This document shows positions 4,402 through 47,532 of a stretch of DNA of 64,000 nucleotides, piece by piece. Position 1 is the stretch's first letter. Every line of letters starts with the position of its first letter. Source of the stretch: Catalinimonas alkaloidigena (GTDB lineage Bacteria > Bacteroidota > Bacteroidia > Cytophagales > Flexibacteraceae). A model generated the notes under the pieces. That model saw nothing but the letters and a program-made list of their open reading frames with translations. It did no database searches and was not told the DNA's origin. The stretch covers positions 1 through 64,000 of the forward strand of contig NZ_FNFO01000006.1 of assembly GCF_900100765.1 (NCBI RefSeq), in the 5' to 3' direction. Made by a program: the position numbers and the translations under genes.

Positions 4402-5172
4402 GTGACTCAAGACACCGACCCTCTACTCTACGACGGACACAAGCGCTACCACCCCGGACTTTCCGTCGATTGCGTGATTTTTGGTTTTCACGACAACCAG
4501 CTCAAAGTACTCTTGTTGAAGATGTCGCACACCGACCAGCGGTGGGCGCTCCCCGGGGGCTTTGTGCTGAAGGACGAGGACGTAGAGTCGGCGGCGCACC
4601 ACGTACTGCAGTCGCGTACGGGGCTCGACAACATTTTTCTGCGTCAGTTTTACCTGTTCGGCGAAGTGGAACGCAGCGACCGGGAACTCAACCGCAAGAT
4701 GTTGCAGGGGCGGGGCGTCGACCCTCACGAAGACCATTGGCTCCTGCAGCGGTTCATCACGATTGGCTACTACGCACTGGTCGATTTCACCAAAGCACTG
4801 CCCCGTCCCGACGAACTGTCCGACGCCTGCGACTGGTGGGATTTTCACAACCTGCCGCCTCTGATGATGGACCACGCGCGCATCCTCCAGAAAGCGCTGG
4901 AAGCCCTCCGGCAGCAACTGAACCGGGAGCCCATCGGCTACAACCTCCTGCCCGAAAAGTTCACGATGCCCGAGCTGCAGAAGCTTTACGAAACCATCCT
5001 GGGCAAAACCCTCGACCGCCGCAACTTCCAACGGAAAATGCTGGCCTACGGCATTCTGGAACGCCTCAACGAACGGCGGAGCGGCGGCGCCCACAAAGCA
5101 CCGTATCTCTACCGCTTCGACCTGGCCAGCTACCACAAAGCCCTCGAAGAAGGCTTCAGCGGCGGCTGGTAA
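4402..5172 (+). CDS. Nudix-domain transcriptional regulator (NrtR/AraR-like)
   Basis: The protein (256 aa from the GTG at 4402) has an N-terminal Nudix fold (about residues 15-150) and a C-terminal winged-helix region (about 165-250, with KFTMPELQKLYETILG and RRNFQRKML as the likely DNA-binding part). The Nudix box keeps GGF and the terminal TGL, but the catalytic REuxEE is replaced by HVLQSR. It is therefore probably an effector-binding, non-hydrolysing domain, as in NrtR and the AraR regulators of Bacteroidetes. Such proteins usually control sugar or NAD metabolism. Its targets here may be the downstream sugar genes (inference). An upstream GTG at 4324 is possible, but a promoter element lies after it. 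Confidence 0.82.
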   Translation: MTQDTDPLLYDGHKRYHPGLSVDCVIFGFHDNQLKVLLLKMSHTDQRWALPGGFVLKDEDVESAAHHVLQSRTGLDNIFLRQFYLFGEVERSDRELNRKMLQGRGVDPHEDHWLLQRFITIGYYALVDFTKALPRPDELSDACDWWDFHNLPPLMMDHARILQKALEALRQQLNREPIGYNLLPEKFTMPELQKLYETILGKTLDRRNFQRKMLAYGILERLNERRSGGAHKAPYLYRFDLASYHKALEEGFSGGW

Positions 5173-42161: not shown

Positions 42162-42652
42162 TCGACCTGGGTTGATAACGTCAAGGCCACTTCCGGGTGT
42201 CGGTGCTCACTACCCGGAAGTGGCCTTGACGTAAGTAGGTGAAGTGCTGACTGGAAAATACTGAAAAATCAGTATTGCCTTTCCGGGCCATCGTTGCGTT
42301 ATTGCCGCTCTTGACAAGCGGCTTCTCAGCGCTTTCGCTCTGGGGCAGGCATCCGCAAGGAGGGAGCAGGTCAGACCGCTCCGTATCATTCGATCCTTCC
42401 CATGTTCTGATGACGGCTTTCCTCGGGCCGTTTGCCCTCAAGTTCACTCGCCTCGTGTTTTGGGAAAGCTGCGCAATGGTCTGTGTCGCAGGTGTCTACG
42501 CATGTGGGCTGCCCTCCTGAACCGTTGCCGAAGCCATGCTGCGGTCTGTCCGCCTGGGCGGGCTAAGCACCCGTAACCCTTGGCCCGCGCTTGCGTCTAT
42601 ACACAGGCGCTTCTGGCGCCTTCTCCTTTCACCCTCATCCTCCATTTTCCCC
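42162..42652. other. Intergenic stretch without a gene
   Basis: No supported gene lies here. It begins with the 21-bp inverted repeat (42178-42232). The rest shows no clear repeats and only short, random ORFs. Confidence 0.5.
42178..42232. repeat. Perfect 21-bp inverted repeat with 13-nt loop
   Basis: The left arm 42178-42198 (ACGTCAAGGCCACTTCCGGG...) is the exact reverse complement of 42212-42232. There is no T-run after it. It has the same loop length and a shared CCACTT core with the hairpin at 252-300. It could end transcription, or be the remains of a dispersed element. Confidence 0.75.
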
Positions 42653-43666
42653 ATGGCACAAACTGATAAAGTGTGTTTTGACCGGATTTTGCCCGGCGAC
42701 CTTCGTAAACCCCTGACCGGCCCGATGCTCAGCCTGGGCATTGGCCCCACCCGCGCGGCCTTTCAGATCGCTAAACTTTGGCCCAACGGCTCTACGCTGC
42801 ACTTCCGCTTCCTGGGAGGCACGGCCGCACAGCAGGCTCAGGTGCAGCAGTATTCTGTAGAGTGGACGCAGTACGCCAACCTCACGTTTGTGTTCGACAA
42901 TGCCGTAGATGCACAAATCCGAATTGCGTTCAACGACGACGGGGCTTGGTCGTACATCGGGACCGATGCGCTGAGCATTCCGGCCGACCAACCTACTATG
43001 AACTTCGGCTGGCTCGATCAGGGCGTGATTCTGCACGAGTTCGGACACATGCTCGGCATGATCCACGAGCACCAGAACCCCCGCGATAATCCAATTGAAT
43101 GGAACAAACCGGTGGTCAACACGGCCCTCAGCGGCCCCCCTAATTTCTGGAACCAAACCACCATCGACCACAACCTGTACGAAAAGTACGAGACCAGCCA
43201 GATCAACGGCAGCACGTTCGATCCCGACTCGATTATGCTGTACAGCTTTCCGGCCGAATGGACCCTCAACGGATTCCATACCGACCCGAATGAGCAGCTC
43301 TCCGACCTGGATCGACAATTTGCCGAGTTGGTCTATCCGAATGCGGTGCCGACTGCACCGGTCGAACTGCCCGTCTTCGAGGGCGCTACCCAGGCCGAGA
43401 TCGGGCAACCCGGAGAAGAGGACTTGTTCTCTTTTCAGGCCAAACGTGCCGGACGGTATACGGTCGAGACCAGCGGGTCGACCGACGTGGTGATGACGTT
43501 GTTTGGGCCGACGGGCGATTTGCTGGCGCAGGACGACGACAGCGGAACGGGCCGCAACGCCCGCATTGTAAGCGAGTTAATACCCGGGACCTATACCGTG
43601 CAGGTGCGTCATTACAACACTTCGAACGGGACGGGCACGTACGGAATCAAGGTAGAAAAGGAATAA
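42653..43666 (+). CDS. M12/astacin-like metalloprotease with PPC domain
   Basis: The 337-aa protein has the full astacin-type zinc site HEFGHMLGMIHEH (from His128) and a Met-turn SIMLYSFP. From about residue 245 a pre-peptidase C-terminal (PPC) beta domain follows (LFSFQAKRAGRYTVETSGSTDVVMTLFGPTGDLLAQDDD). No signal peptide or propeptide is seen: the protein starts with MAQTDKVCF. That is odd for a protease of this type, so export by another route or a cytoplasmic role is possible. The ATG at 42653 fits; upstream codons do not form a signal peptide. Confidence 0.86.
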   Translation: MAQTDKVCFDRILPGDLRKPLTGPMLSLGIGPTRAAFQIAKLWPNGSTLHFRFLGGTAAQQAQVQQYSVEWTQYANLTFVFDNAVDAQIRIAFNDDGAWSYIGTDALSIPADQPTMNFGWLDQGVILHEFGHMLGMIHEHQNPRDNPIEWNKPVVNTALSGPPNFWNQTTIDHNLYEKYETSQINGSTFDPDSIMLYSFPAEWTLNGFHTDPNEQLSDLDRQFAELVYPNAVPTAPVELPVFEGATQAEIGQPGEEDLFSFQAKRAGRYTVETSGSTDVVMTLFGPTGDLLAQDDDSGTGRNARIVSELIPGTYTVQVRHYNTSNGTGTYGIKVEKE

Positions 43667-43697: not shown

Positions 43698-43731
43698 ACC
43701 ATCCCGGTAAAAACCGTCGGATGGTTTTTTT
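43698..43731 (+). terminator. Intrinsic terminator
   Basis: ACCATCC (43698-43704) and GGATGGT (43719-43725) form a stem, with an inner GGT/ACC pairing, and TTTTTTT follows. It ends the metalloprotease transcript right before the convergent UmuC-like gene. Confidence 0.8.
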
Positions 43732-45040
43732 AATGTACGTTGAGGAGGTCGTCCCAGCTGAGGGTAGCCTGCGGTGCTGTCGGGGCGTCTGCCGTTTCCT
43801 GACGCGCGCGTTGGGCAACCTGTTGTACAAAGTCATGGCCCATTTTCTGGTGCACCTGATCGATCATTTTGCGGAACTGACGCTGCTGGTGGCCTTCGTC
43901 CGTGGCCTCGAATAAGTTATACTGAGTCGGGCTTTCGGGACGCACGTCCAGCAGAAGGACTCCTGCTTTCAGGTAAGGCGGGGCGGGGGCCTCACGATCG
44001 GAACGCAACCAGCGCGACAGGGCCTCGGACGTGAACTGCGCCAACTGTGCGGGCGACTGGGTGGCCTGCGGCAGGGCTAGAGTTAGGGTGTGCGACGCAG
44101 AAGCGTGGTGCGTTGCGGGCGTGGTGAGCAATACCGAGACCATTCCTGCTACCGACCGCCGTTGCTGTAGCTTCCTGGCCGCGCGGGTGGTGAGTGCCGC
44201 CACGGCTTCAGTCACTAGTTTGGCGTCGGAGAGGGGAGGGCGGAACCCCCGTGTGGCGCTGATGGACTGGGCGGCAGAAGCGGCCCGACCCGGTGTATTG
44301 CAACGAAAACCCCATAACTCTTTCCAGAGGCGAAGCCCGGGCGTGCGCAGGTGCTGTTTCACCCAGTCGGGGGACGCGTGCCGAAATGCGGCGCCGGTTT
44401 CGATGCTGTGCCGTTGCAGGAAGTCGGCGATGCGTGTGCTCACGCCCCACACGTCTTGAATGGGGGTGCGTTGCAGGGCGGCTTCCACGTGGTGCGGTTG
44501 CAACAAGGCCAAGACTCCCTGCGCCTTTTTAGAGCGCCTCGCAATGCGGTTGGCGACTTTCGCCAGGGTTTGGGTTTCGGCAATGCCGACCGAGAGCGGC
44601 AGGTTGAGCCACTTGCCGACGGTGGTTTGTAACGTCTGTCCGTATTGGTGAAGGTCCTGTCCCGTCAGGCCGTCCAGGTCAAGAAAAGCGGCCTCCGGTC
44701 CATGCGCTTCCAGGTGAGGCGTATAGTGCGCCAGCGTATCCCACACGCGTTGCGATAACTCGTCGTACAACGCATCGTTGCTTGGTAAAACGGCGATCTG
44801 GTGCGCTTCGACCAAAGCTCCGATTTTGAAGAGGGGCGTACCGGGCAGAATGCCCAACGCCAGGGCTTCGTGGCTGCAGGTCCGTACTTCGTCTGCATCG
44901 GGCGCAAGCACCACCAGCGGTCGGCTCACCAGAGAAGGATCGGCGACCCGCTCGCACGCCACAAAAAACTCGGGGATTTCAGCCAGGGCAATGGCTTTGC
45001 CGGTCGAAAGGGCCATCGGGCGTTGCGGTATCTGCTTCAT
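43730..45040 (-). CDS. Y-family DNA polymerase-like protein (UmuC-like) with degenerate active site
   Basis: The 436-aa protein aligns by eye along UmuC: PEFFVACERVADPSLVSRPLVVL (palm start), LPSNDALYDELSQRV, AFLDLDGL, GIAETQTLAKVANRIAR, VWGVSTRIADFLQ, and a C-terminal DUF4113-like end (SWDDLLNVH). Key carboxylates of the polymerase are changed: the first Asp is Glu (residue 21), and the SIDEAF motif reads GPEAAF, losing the Asp-Glu pair. The NNDG..AR motif and the conserved Tyr of SNY are also lost. It is probably a non-catalytic relative that binds DNA or partners (inference). Possible starts are 45064, 45040 and 45016; 45040 is used. Confidence 0.75.
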   Translation of the reverse strand: MKQIPQRPMALSTGKAIALAEIPEFFVACERVADPSLVSRPLVVLAPDADEVRTCSHEALALGILPGTPLFKIGALVEAHQIAVLPSNDALYDELSQRVWDTLAHYTPHLEAHGPEAAFLDLDGLTGQDLHQYGQTLQTTVGKWLNLPLSVGIAETQTLAKVANRIARRSKKAQGVLALLQPHHVEAALQRTPIQDVWGVSTRIADFLQRHSIETGAAFRHASPDWVKQHLRTPGLRLWKELWGFRCNTPGRAASAAQSISATRGFRPPLSDAKLVTEAVAALTTRAARKLQQRRSVAGMVSVLLTTPATHHASASHTLTLALPQATQSPAQLAQFTSEALSRWLRSDREAPAPPYLKAGVLLLDVRPESPTQYNLFEATDEGHQQRQFRKMIDQVHQKMGHDFVQQVAQRARQETADAPTAPQATLSWDDLLNVH

Positions 45041-45824
45041 GTCGACATCTTGGTGCGGAGACATCCTGCTTCGTACACAGGAGGGTAAGCCTTCTTTCCA
45101 ATGCAAAAATCGGCTGCTTTGTTCATTTCGTGCAACGCATAACGCAAGCGTTTGGATTGCCCGGGCGGTGCCGTTATCCTCCCACGCGCAAACGGGCATT
45201 AAAACCGTCGGAAGGCGGGGCAGATCCTACACCGGTTCTGCGAGCAAATTAGCCCAACCTCGGCTGTTGCCGATACCGCTGGCGGGTGCAAGATCCCGGT
45301 GATCGGGAGGAAGGGCACGCCTCTTGGCACGAAACTCTGGCAACGCGATAAGTTGTGAAATCGGTAGAAATGCTTCCCAATGTTTGGGAAGGTAAGGTTT
45401 TAAGAATTTACCTCGCCTCCAAGGTTTTAGGGACGTAAAGTCTGGTTGTACCGTGCTGGTGACAGATGTGATTTTGCGAAGAATCTCCCGTGCCTCTTCC
45501 ATTCGATATTTGCCGATTTTTCGCTTCTACGTTGCCGGAAACGCCGCTGAGTGAGCTCCATAACATTTTACGCAGCGACCTATCTTCATTTGTTACTGTA
45601 TAATGTTACCGACAGGACGCCGTGGGAACGGCCTGACAAAAAACCGAGGAGCGTAAGAAAAAAAGACAATTTTTTCTGGCAGGAAGTGTAGGAAAAAAAG
45701 GGCGTTGTACACGAAACCTGCCGAACTGGCAGAACCTTGAGTAAAAATAGCGTGTCTTCAAAAACCTGTGTTAGGGAGGATCTTGTAAAGTTTATACTTT
45801 GGATGGACTTCGGAAACTGAAAGT
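45041..45824. other. Intergenic region with one weak ORF
   Basis: Between the UmuC-like start and the next + gene there is one doubtful ORF (45227-45502, - strand). The rest has AT-rich patches with A-runs near 45660-45710 and no recognised repeat. Confidence 0.4.
45227..45502 (-). CDS. Doubtful small hypothetical protein
   Basis: The 91-aa ORF has an ATG at 45502 and a plausible N-terminal half (MEEAREILRKITSVTSTVQPDF). The C-terminal half looks like non-coding sequence. No family is recognised. It may not be expressed, or may be the remnant of a longer gene. Confidence 0.25.
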   Translation of the reverse strand: MEEAREILRKITSVTSTVQPDFTSLKPWRRGKFLKPYLPKHWEAFLPISQLIALPEFRAKRRALPPDHRDLAPASGIGNSRGWANLLAEPV

Positions 45825-46481: not shown

Positions 46482-46516
46482 CGCCAGAAGTTCTACCGGT
46501 TTTGTGCCTATTTTTT
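46469..46516. terminator. Bidirectional terminator
   Basis: ACAAAACCGGTAG (46469-46481) pairs exactly with CTACCGGTTTTGT (46493-46505), with A/T-rich outer ends, and TATTTTTT follows. It serves the convergent genes ending at 46481 and 46508. Confidence 0.8.
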
Positions 46517-46726
46517 AGGAGGCAGATCGAAAGCTTGCGGCGTGTGTTCGAAGTAGCCCTTGTGGGAGCCGTCGCAAAAAGGTTTGTTCTTCGAATTTCC
46601 GCAGCGGCAGAGCGACACTAACGTGCGTCCGCCTAAGCCGTAGGGTTTCCCTTCGGCATCCAGAATTTCAAAATCGCCTTCTACTTTCATGGAGCCGTTC
46701 GGAAGGATTTTTAGCGTTGTCGCCAT
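46508..46726 (-). CDS. CDGSH iron-sulfur domain protein
   Basis: The 72-aa protein carries the whole CDGSH cluster motif CRCGNSKNKPFCDGSH, with ligands Cys40, Cys42, Cys51 and His55 for a [2Fe-2S] centre. Before it lies a short beta segment with the usual GPL-like lead (LGGRTLVSLC). It is cytosolic, with no anchor, and probably takes part in electron or Fe-S transfer. The ATG at 46726 gives the usual small size; the frame upstream is unrelated to the family. Confidence 0.9.
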   Translation of the reverse strand: MATTLKILPNGSMKVEGDFEILDAEGKPYGLGGRTLVSLCRCGNSKNKPFCDGSHKGYFEHTPQAFDLPPKK

Positions 46727-46790
46727 AGGTGAAGCGTATCGGTGATGAACTAAACAATAAATTACAGACTGTACGGGCTCGCCGCATGTA

Positions 46791-47414
46791 CTACTCGGCT
46801 TCGAGTGCCTCCAGCACATCGGCAATCTGGTCAAAATCTTTGTAGCCCGGGCGAATTTCTTCTCCGCCGCGGAGGGCAATCCCCATCGGTCGGATGTCGT
46901 TAAGCAGCGGATCGAGCGCTTCGGGCGTGACCGGATAGCCCAGTAAAATGGGGTGATCGGCACACAGTTGCTGGAGTTGCGGCGGCGAAAGTGGCAGGTC
47001 CCCGTGCGAAGTGGTCCCATGAGGCAGTTCCAGCAGAAAATAGTGGACCGTATCGGCGTGCCAGGCCATCAGCTGCTGTAGTTTTTGCGGATTGGTTTCG
47101 GTCACCCGCAGAATGATCGGCAATTCCAGCCCCACTAGATCTTCGATGGCTTCCGATTTATTGGTAAGCACGTATTGCAACGGATAGCGCTCGGCCAGGC
47201 GTCGGACTTCGTGGGCCGGTTCGTCGTCGAACTCGCCGACCAGCGCGACGCCCGCCAGCCAGTCGGTAATTTCCCGGAAGTCCTGCTCGCTCAACCGGTG
47301 CGGGTGCGAAGTGGCCAGCGGAAAGCCGATCAGCGAAACGCCCATGCCGGCTCCGTAGCGCGCGTCGCTCAGGTTATTCACCGAACTCAGGAAAACGGTA
47401 GTTTTTAGCATCAT
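46791..47414 (-). CDS. TrpF-like beta/alpha-barrel protein
   Basis: The 207-aa protein resembles phosphoribosylanthranilate isomerase in layout: an opening strand with NNLSDARYGAGMGVSLIGF, and the late GGEEIRPGYKDFDQIADVL that corresponds to the family's phosphate-site end. The catalytic Cys of the KxCG motif is replaced (VFLSSVN), and the catalytic Asp in the FLLD strand is Glu (YFLLELP). It therefore probably does not isomerise PRA, and may be a regulatory or repurposed barrel (inference). No other trp gene is nearby. The start is taken as the ATG at 47414, with one more Met right after. Confidence 0.68.
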   Translation of the reverse strand: MMLKTTVFLSSVNNLSDARYGAGMGVSLIGFPLATSHPHRLSEQDFREITDWLAGVALVGEFDDEPAHEVRRLAERYPLQYVLTNKSEAIEDLVGLELPIILRVTETNPQKLQQLMAWHADTVHYFLLELPHGTTSHGDLPLSPPQLQQLCADHPILLGYPVTPEALDPLLNDIRPMGIALRGGEEIRPGYKDFDQIADVLEALEAE

Positions 47415-47532
47415 ATGCAAGTATACATCAAGCGATAGAACGAATAGGGATAAAACCGTGTTAAGTTCCTACCTCGGAAAAACGAGGTGGCGTATTGCAG
47501 GTACGTGTGGCGGCGGTATTCTGTTGGTTTAC

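What the first reader, a model, noticed from the sequence alone, without database searches (positions are those of the whole stretch)
43730..45040. Intact UmuC-like polymerase that has lost its catalytic carboxylates
Aligned with UmuC by eye, the first Asp is Glu and SIDEAF reads GPEAAF, while other nucleotide-binding residues (the Arg after NNDG, the SNY Tyr) are also lost; yet the reading frame is intact over 436 residues with a DUF4113-like tail. This suggests a conserved non-polymerase role, comparable to the inactive Y-family partner ImuB.
Basis: partly seen in the sequence, partly recalled or inferred. Interest (0 to 1): 0.7.

Follow-up and report, generated by a model that had tools for sequence, protein, structure and literature searches.

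The report
UmuC copy with erased active site
This bacterium carries, besides a normal error-prone repair polymerase, a second copy whose DNA-making site has been rewritten while its overall shape and its hook for the replication clamp remain, so it probably regulates DNA repair rather than copying DNA.

Summary
Observation confirmed. Window 43730-45040 (-) encodes an intact 436-aa UmuC homologue whose catalytic Asp, Asp, Glu read Glu21, Glu116, Ala117; the nucleotide-binding finger loop and SNY motif are rewritten. Among 145 relatives plus the genome's second UmuC, 146 of 146 keep Asp-Glu at motif II and 145 of 146 the first Asp. It is a paralogue of a complete umuDC elsewhere in the same genome (49% identity, sister with full support) on a six-fold longer branch. 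The loss is patterned: catalytic motifs and UmuD-binding tail erased; fold, thumb and beta-clamp motif kept; RecA-binding motif weakened. A branch dN/dS of 1 is rejected, and drift to this divergence would give about 8-11 stops, so simple decay is unlikely, though recent release from selection is not excluded. The ImuB comparison holds only as 'inactive Y-family protein with a clamp motif': one DnaE, no DnaE2 found, no ImuB-C. Best reading: a clamp-binding UmuC that cannot synthesise DNA and tempers or replaces Pol V/Pol IV at damaged forks. No orthologue was found, so conservation between species is untested and the role is inferred.

The parts
43730..45040 (-). UmuC-like pseudo-polymerase gene, 436 aa plus stop (P0001)
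   Evidence: GC3 0.706 against 0.678-0.790 in four neighbouring genes and 0.547 in the upstream extension to 45199
44963..44989 (-). Metal motif I, residues 18-26 (ALVDxNNFY -> ALAEIPEFF; Asp -> Glu21)
   Evidence: profile z -8.1
44861..44908 (-). Finger loop, residues 45-60 (LSNNDGCVIARSNEAK -> LAPDADEVRTCSHEAL); K/R -> Leu60
   Evidence: profile z -15.4
44753..44788 (-). SSNY region, residues 85-96 (Tyr -> Asp89, GD -> DE)
   Evidence: profile z -8.9
44684..44710 (-). Metal motif II, residues 111-119 (EVYSIDEAF -> EAHGPEAAF; Asp -> Glu116, Glu -> Ala117)
   Evidence: profile z -19.1
43937..44275 (-). Little-finger domain, residues 256-368, moderately diverged, fold predicted present
   Evidence: profile z -4.0; pLDDT 78-95 in the ten-residue blocks from 261 to 370
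43910..43924 (-). Beta-clamp-binding motif QYNLF, residues 373-377, retained
   Evidence: profile z +0.4, rank 83 of 146; sister copy has QFNLF; consensus QxxLF in PMC12926913
43823..43885 (-). RecA-NT-like motif, residues 386-406, weakened; near-invariant D394 and G401 kept
   Evidence: z -2.0, rank 6 of 146 from the bottom
43733..43816 (-). UmuD-binding tail, residues 409-436, degenerated (near-invariant W414 and T427 lost, SPxYTT not recognisable)
   Evidence: profile z -5.2, lowest of 146; pLDDT 41-48 (blocks 411-436) against 54-74 (blocks 401-431) in the sister copy

Best explanation
The gene is a lineage-specific paralogue of UmuC that has become a pseudo-polymerase. It keeps the Y-family hand, the beta-clamp motif and a weakened RecA-binding motif. 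It has lost the residues for metal and dNTP binding and the tail by which UmuC docks UmuD'. Shown by sequence: paralogy, patterned loss, retained modules, selection against protein change averaged over the branch. Inferred: after DNA damage it binds the clamp (and perhaps RecA) at stalled forks without synthesising DNA and without needing UmuD cleavage. It would thereby compete with or stand in for the apparently active Pol V and Pol IV of the same cell, limiting mutagenesis or holding the fork, much like the non-synthesising UmuD2C form of E. coli Pol V but fixed in a separate gene.
For: Catalytic D, D, E replaced. 25 of 64 near-invariant columns lost here, 0 of 64 in the sister UmuC. Sister relation with local support 1.0, terminal branch 1.22 against 0.20; the seven next-longest branches of the tree (0.87-1.09) all keep D, D, E, so long divergence alone does not erase the site. 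Module profile: catalytic motifs z -8 to -19, UmuD tail -5, clamp motif +0.4, thumb -1.2, rest of palm/fingers -1.6. The catalytic stretches are less conserved than the rest here, in 0 of 144 relatives. omega = 1 on the branch is 22.8 lnL worse than the best fit. Drift simulation: 0 of 400 runs stop-free at 50% identity at each of three GC settings. AlphaFold mean pLDDT 86.8; Z 30.6, rmsd 3.2, 333 residues to Dpo4 1jx4. DinB and the C15 UmuC of the genome have intact motifs. [quoted passage not shown]
Against: No orthologue found, so conservation after the loss is not shown directly. dS is saturated, so only an upper bound on omega is available, averaged over the branch. A recent release from selection would not show: drift down to 90% identity leaves 9-16% of runs stop-free. 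A simple comparison of upstream sequences found only 10-12 base exact matches and no promoter pattern for this gene. The RecA-NT motif is weak (rank 6 of 146 from the bottom) and the little finger is diverged (rank 2 of 146). Nothing shows expression, binding or a regulatory effect.
Confidence: 0.5

Rival explanations
1. Decaying duplicate: the copy served as a polymerase for much of its branch, lost catalysis more recently, and is now drifting towards a pseudogene whose frame has not yet broken.
For: Longest terminal branch of 147 (1.22 against 0.20 for the sister); no orthologue; no umuD beside it; little finger and tail diverged; a short recent drift can leave the frame open (9-16% of runs stop-free at 90% identity).
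Against: omega of 1 rejected over the branch; no stop where drift to 50% identity gives on average 7.7-10.6; loss concentrated in catalytic motifs and tail rather than spread. Three broken or truncated umuC copies of relatives that can be read at motif II (L243, L245, L247) keep its Asp-Glu; L244 lacks the region.
Confidence: 0.25
2. Non-catalytic subunit of a mixed mutasome: it pairs with the active UmuC, Pol IV or DnaE1 as a scaffold, as ImuB does for DnaE2, raising rather than lowering mutagenesis.
For: ImuB shows that an inactive Y-family protein with a clamp motif can organise another polymerase (PMC6511836 and PMC3901139 passages); a clamp motif and a weakened RecA motif remain.
Against: No DnaE2 found, no ImuB-C, no umuD or recA-like gene in the window and no repair partner among the eight neighbouring frames scanned.
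Confidence: 0.15
3. An active enzyme with altered chemistry: two glutamates replace the metal-binding aspartates and allow reduced or different catalysis, for example with manganese.
For: Two of the three replacements keep a carboxyl group; the fold is predicted present.
Against: The third carboxylate, the Lys after SNEA, the SNY aromatic and the finger loop are gone. In E. coli D101N alone renders UmuC catalytically inactive (PMC5342242 passage); that D101 is the equivalent of position 116 is recalled, not computed here.
Confidence: 0.07

Closest known systems
UmuC of DNA polymerase V (sister copy on contig C15 of the same genome)
   Same: Direct paralogue (49% identity, sister with support 1.0); same domains, clamp motif, RecA-NT position
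   Different: Catalytic Asp-Asp-Glu, finger loop, SNY and UmuD-binding tail lost; no umuD beside it
ImuB (ImuA-ImuB-DnaE2 mutasome)
   Same: Inactive Y-family protein with clamp motif and RecA-NT-like motif (passages of PMC6511836 and PMC12926913)
   Different: UmuC descent, no ImuB-C domain, no DnaE2 found in the genome
Other inactive PolYs: S. coelicolor DinB2, G. bemidjiensis DinB2, Kyrpidia iPolY
   Same: Y-family proteins without catalytic residues; most PolY groups, active and inactive, keep clamp and RecA-NT motifs
   Different: Those are associated with DnaE2, and the 2019 survey says inactive groups other than ImuB tend to be nearer PolY-core; this one lies inside UmuC
UmuD2C checkpoint complex of E. 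coli
   Same: Proposed mode of action: UmuC at the clamp without DNA synthesis (PMC4045847 passages)
   Different: There it is the uncleaved-UmuD state of the active enzyme; here it would be a separate, permanently inactive gene without a good UmuD tail

Membership tests
UmuC subfamily (by descent) | Groups with UmuC in a tree | tested here: met
   Sister to the C15 UmuC, support 1.0, in a tree of 147. Best NCBIfam hit NF002955 UmuC, 192.6 bits, below its cut-off of 431; the C15 copy, 405.5 bits, is also below it
UmuC subfamily (as Pol V catalytic subunit) | Catalytic Asp, Asp-Glu | tested here: not met
   E21, E116, A117
UmuC subfamily (as Pol V catalytic subunit) | C-terminal UmuD'-binding tail / DUF4113 | tested here: not met
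   DUF4113 14.2 bits against cut-off 24 on the isolated tail, none listed for the whole protein; tail z -5.2, lowest of 146
UmuC subfamily (as Pol V catalytic subunit) | umuD partner next to it | tested here: not met
   No umuD match above chance in the window; umuD copies lie on C15 and C1
ImuB | Inactive Y-family core | tested here: met
   By residues only; activity not assayed
ImuB | Beta-clamp-binding motif | tested here: met
   QYNLF, residues 373-377; binding not assayed
ImuB | ImuB-C domain after the RecA-NT motif | tested here: not met
   Only 30 residues follow residue 406, mostly pLDDT below 50; no further Pfam domain
ImuB | DnaE2 in the genome | tested here: not met
   One PF07733 match, 1,183-aa frame, in a 99.5% complete genome
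ImuB | ImuA in the genome | tested here: inconclusive
   One match to PF00154, RecA; a divergent ImuA could be missed
Y-family DNA polymerase fold | Palm, fingers, thumb, little finger | tested here: met
   IMS and IMS_C; Z 27.9-31.1 in the 50 listed rows, residues about 13-368

The most novel reading that the evidence does not exclude
A Pol V subunit has split into an enzyme and a dedicated, permanently non-synthesising brake: a UmuC that binds the clamp but not dNTPs or UmuD', giving the cell a damage checkpoint or anti-mutator encoded separately from the mutator. The orphan UmuD on contig C1 might be part of the same split.
Probability: 0.3. Interest if true: 0.75.

Novelty: new variant of a known kind. 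Interest (0 to 1): 0.5.

Why it matters
Inactive Y-family proteins are known, but the named inactive groups in the passages I saw of the two surveys are linked to DnaE2. A UmuC-derived one beside an intact Pol V and without DnaE2 would be a natural separation-of-function allele for the non-synthetic (checkpoint) role proposed for UmuC. That role could then be tested apart from translesion synthesis.

Tried and rejected
ImuB-like partner hypothesis: rejected as stated, because only a single DnaE was found.

Orthologue searches found none: genome contigs by peptide patterns (6 loci, at most 34% identity), viral contigs (0 relatives), plasmids (capped at 5,000 records, all below 60%; best of 40 listed 36.6%), 98 relatives, 390 genomes of the order at E 1e-60, 395 of the phylum at E 1e-30. 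Each genome count includes the own genome; at most four candidates per genome were scored, and the match list is cut. Phage records were not searched. No other genome of the genus is among the 98.

Longer start at 45199 and upstream ORF 45227-45502 as an operon partner: not favoured, GC3 0.547 and 0.473 against 0.678-0.790 in four nearby genes; no Pfam hit, no second copy in the genome.

Shared promoter or operator with umuD, umuD2 or recA: only 10-12 base exact matches.

First codon fits: the fit with omega fixed at 1 had not converged and is superseded by the profile; its other pair of fits showed no higher omega on this branch than elsewhere (likelihood ratio 0.66), but with the branch length at its bound, so I do not use it. 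In one search kappa, background omega and all but two branch lengths were held at one background fit.

The viral scan with the alignment (80 loci) was not used as a census because its search patterns contain the catalytic motif. Residue labels in the first census table were one off for the catalytic residues and for the motif-II neighbours; one search is the corrected count for these, while several other labels (the Lys after SNEA, the SNY Tyr, the LY Tyr, the Lys of AK) point at a neighbouring column and one search is right for positions 60, 89 and 168. One search printed a divide-by-zero warning, from columns without letters; columns under 50% occupied were skipped. IQ-TREE returned nothing; FastTree was used. 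The 145 relatives are mostly the best scorers against this protein, mostly from the same phylum, many closely related; they are not a random sample of UmuC.

Full report
WHAT IS THERE. The minus strand of 43730-45040 carries one open frame of 436 codons. Pfam finds the Y-family core IMS (91 bits) and IMS_C (46.5 bits). GC3 is 0.706, in line with four neighbouring genes (0.678-0.790), while the possible upstream extension (0.547) is not, so a start near 45040 is sensible. Neighbours look ordinary: an astacin-like protease with a PPC domain converging downstream, and upstream a 146-aa protein without Pfam match, a CDGSH protein and a weak PRA-isomerase-like frame. No umuD match above chance lies in the window.

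THE GENOME. It is 7.1 Mb in 38 contigs, 99.5% complete, with three Y-family genes: DinB on C16, a UmuC with intact motifs on C15 directly behind a umuD, and this one. It shows one PolIII-alpha match, one RecA match and three S24-peptidase proteins: the umuD on C15, a second umuD on C1, a contig with none of the three Y-family genes, and a repressor-like protein on C2.

THE LOSS. I aligned the protein with the C15 UmuC and 145 relatives: 29 loci, 6, 9, 27 and 74; all 145 yielded a frame. The first catalytic Asp is present in 145 of 146; in L150 the stretch does not look homologous. The second Asp and the following Glu are present in 146 of 146. Here they are E21, E116 and A117. The HMMER alignment to a solved Pol IV, 6jun, places E21, E116 and A117 opposite its Asp, Asp and Glu. 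Also changed: the K/R after SNEA (Leu60), the Arg of ARS (Cys55), the aromatic of SNY (Asp89) and the NNDG loop. K168 is Arg, but so it is in 7 of 146, and the Tyr26 position is Phe, as in 3 of 146, so these two prove little. That the Lys/Arg and Tyr positions bind the incoming triphosphate in Dpo4 is recalled, not computed here. Because two Asp became Glu, two carboxyl groups remain; 'lost carboxylates' is strictly true of one of three.

PATTERN. Of 64 near-invariant columns the C15 copy keeps 64 and this protein 39. A leave-one-out profile gives, against 145 others (144 relatives and C15): metal motif II z -19.1, finger loop -15.4, SNY -8.9, metal motif I -8.1, UmuD-binding tail -5.2, little finger -4.0, RecA-NT -2.0, rest of palm/fingers -1.6, thumb -1.2, clamp motif +0.4. 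Against C15 the catalytic stretches are 17 of 46 identical and the rest of residues 15-371 is 162 of 306. In 144 relatives (L150 left out) the catalytic stretches average 84% identity to C15, minimum 70%, and are more conserved than the rest in every one. So the part most constrained in the relatives is less conserved than the rest here, while the scaffold is held.

AGE AND SELECTION. Protein and C15 copy are sisters with local support 1.0. Their terminal branches are 1.22 and 0.20; the median terminal branch of the 147 is 0.24. The seven next-longest terminal branches (0.87-1.09) all keep D, D, E. C15 has the higher bit score against 145 of 145 relatives (mean identity 47% against 33%). A branch codon model on 12 sequences and 409 codons cannot fix omega on this branch because synonymous sites are saturated: of the values tried, 0.02 to 0.2 lie within 1.3 lnL of the best. 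But 0.3 is 4.4, 0.5 is 11.3 and 1.0 is 22.8 lnL worse. Random drift of the C15 gene to 50% identity gave on average 7.7-10.6 in-frame stops and no stop-free run in 400 at each of three GC settings; to 90% identity, 9-16% of runs stayed stop-free. A release from selection in the recent past is therefore not excluded. Against it, many formerly near-invariant catalytic positions have changed, which takes time. Eleven umuC loci of relatives were checked, most of them because of a reported stop or a short match: L243 (one stop) and L247 (match ends early) keep all three catalytic residues, L245 (N-terminal part missing) keeps the Asp-Glu it still has, L244 (two stops) lacks the region, and the other seven showed no stop in the matched part and intact residues.

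STRUCTURE. AlphaFold with 57 sequences gives mean pLDDT 86.8, with 410-426 and 431-436 below 50. The C15 copy with the same 57 sequences gives 91.4 and tail blocks of 54-74. VIA-align finds Dpo4 1jx4 at Z 30.6, rmsd 3.2, 333 residues. The hand is therefore predicted to be complete and the UmuD-docking tail less ordered than in the sister. The models hold no metal, DNA or partner, and side chains at the active site were not examined.

MECHANISM. Retained: clamp motif QYNLF, hand, a weakened RecA-NT motif. Lost: catalytic residues and the UmuD' dock; the C-terminal 28 or so residues of UmuC are a major UmuD'-binding site (PMC6511836, passage). In E. [quoted passage not shown] that paper's own experiments separate one clamp-related growth effect from the checkpoint). 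UmuC D101N is described as catalytically inactive (PMC5342242, passage). The simplest inference is a clamp-bound, non-synthesising UmuC that competes with or restrains Pol V and Pol IV. This is inference; nothing shows expression, binding or phenotype. A scaffold role, decay, or residual altered chemistry remain as rivals.

COMPARISON. The two surveys of bacterial Y-family proteins (PMC6511836, passages; PMC12926913, outline, sections 16 and 20, passages) describe ImuB and several other inactive groups associated with DnaE2. The 2019 survey says that inactive groups other than ImuB tend to be nearer PolY-core; [quoted passage not shown] All eight places naming UmuC in the 2026 text were seen, and none mentions an inactive UmuC paralogue; of the 2019 text I saw passages only. 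Supplementary tables could not be read, so such a protein could be among their dispersed sequences. Paper searches for inactive or paralogous UmuC listed no such description in titles or abstract openings; the one listed paper with the phrase 'inactive UmuC' (PMC9608740) speaks of absent or pseudogenised umuCD (passages). I file it as a new variant of a known kind, the inactive Y-family protein: UmuC-derived, beside an apparently active Pol V, without DnaE2. It is not an ImuB.

LIMITS. One genome, no orthologue, dS saturated, relatives not a random sample, no expression data.

Noticed in passing
Own genome, contig C1 about 890571-891113 (+), locus L143:1571-2113: A second UmuD-like protein (180 aa, NCBIfam UmuD model 140 bits, over its cut-off of 110; 43% identical to the C15 UmuD) on a contig with none of the three Y-family genes. 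It might belong with the orphan UmuC of the window.
   Followed up: partly
Own genome, contig C2, locus L144:1148-1813 (-): A 221-aa protein with a helix-turn-helix-looking N-terminus and an S24 peptidase match, CI-like; a candidate damage-responsive repressor. A canonical LexA was not specifically searched for.
   Followed up: no
window 45227-45502 (-): A 91-aa open frame just upstream of the gene; no Pfam match, no second copy in the genome, GC3 0.473 unlike neighbouring genes; probably not coding.
   Followed up: partly
window 42536-43663 (+): Astacin-like metalloprotease with a bacterial pre-peptidase C-terminal (PPC) domain.
   Followed up: no
window 46508-47020 and 46791-47420 (-): Overlapping frames: a CDGSH iron-sulphur protein, whose listed start is probably too far upstream, and a weak PRA-isomerase-like protein (23.8 bits).
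   Followed up: no
L243, L244, L245, L247 (relatives): Broken or truncated umuC copies in relatives: one with a stop, one with two stops lacking the N-terminal part, one N-terminally truncated, one whose match ends early.
   Followed up: partly
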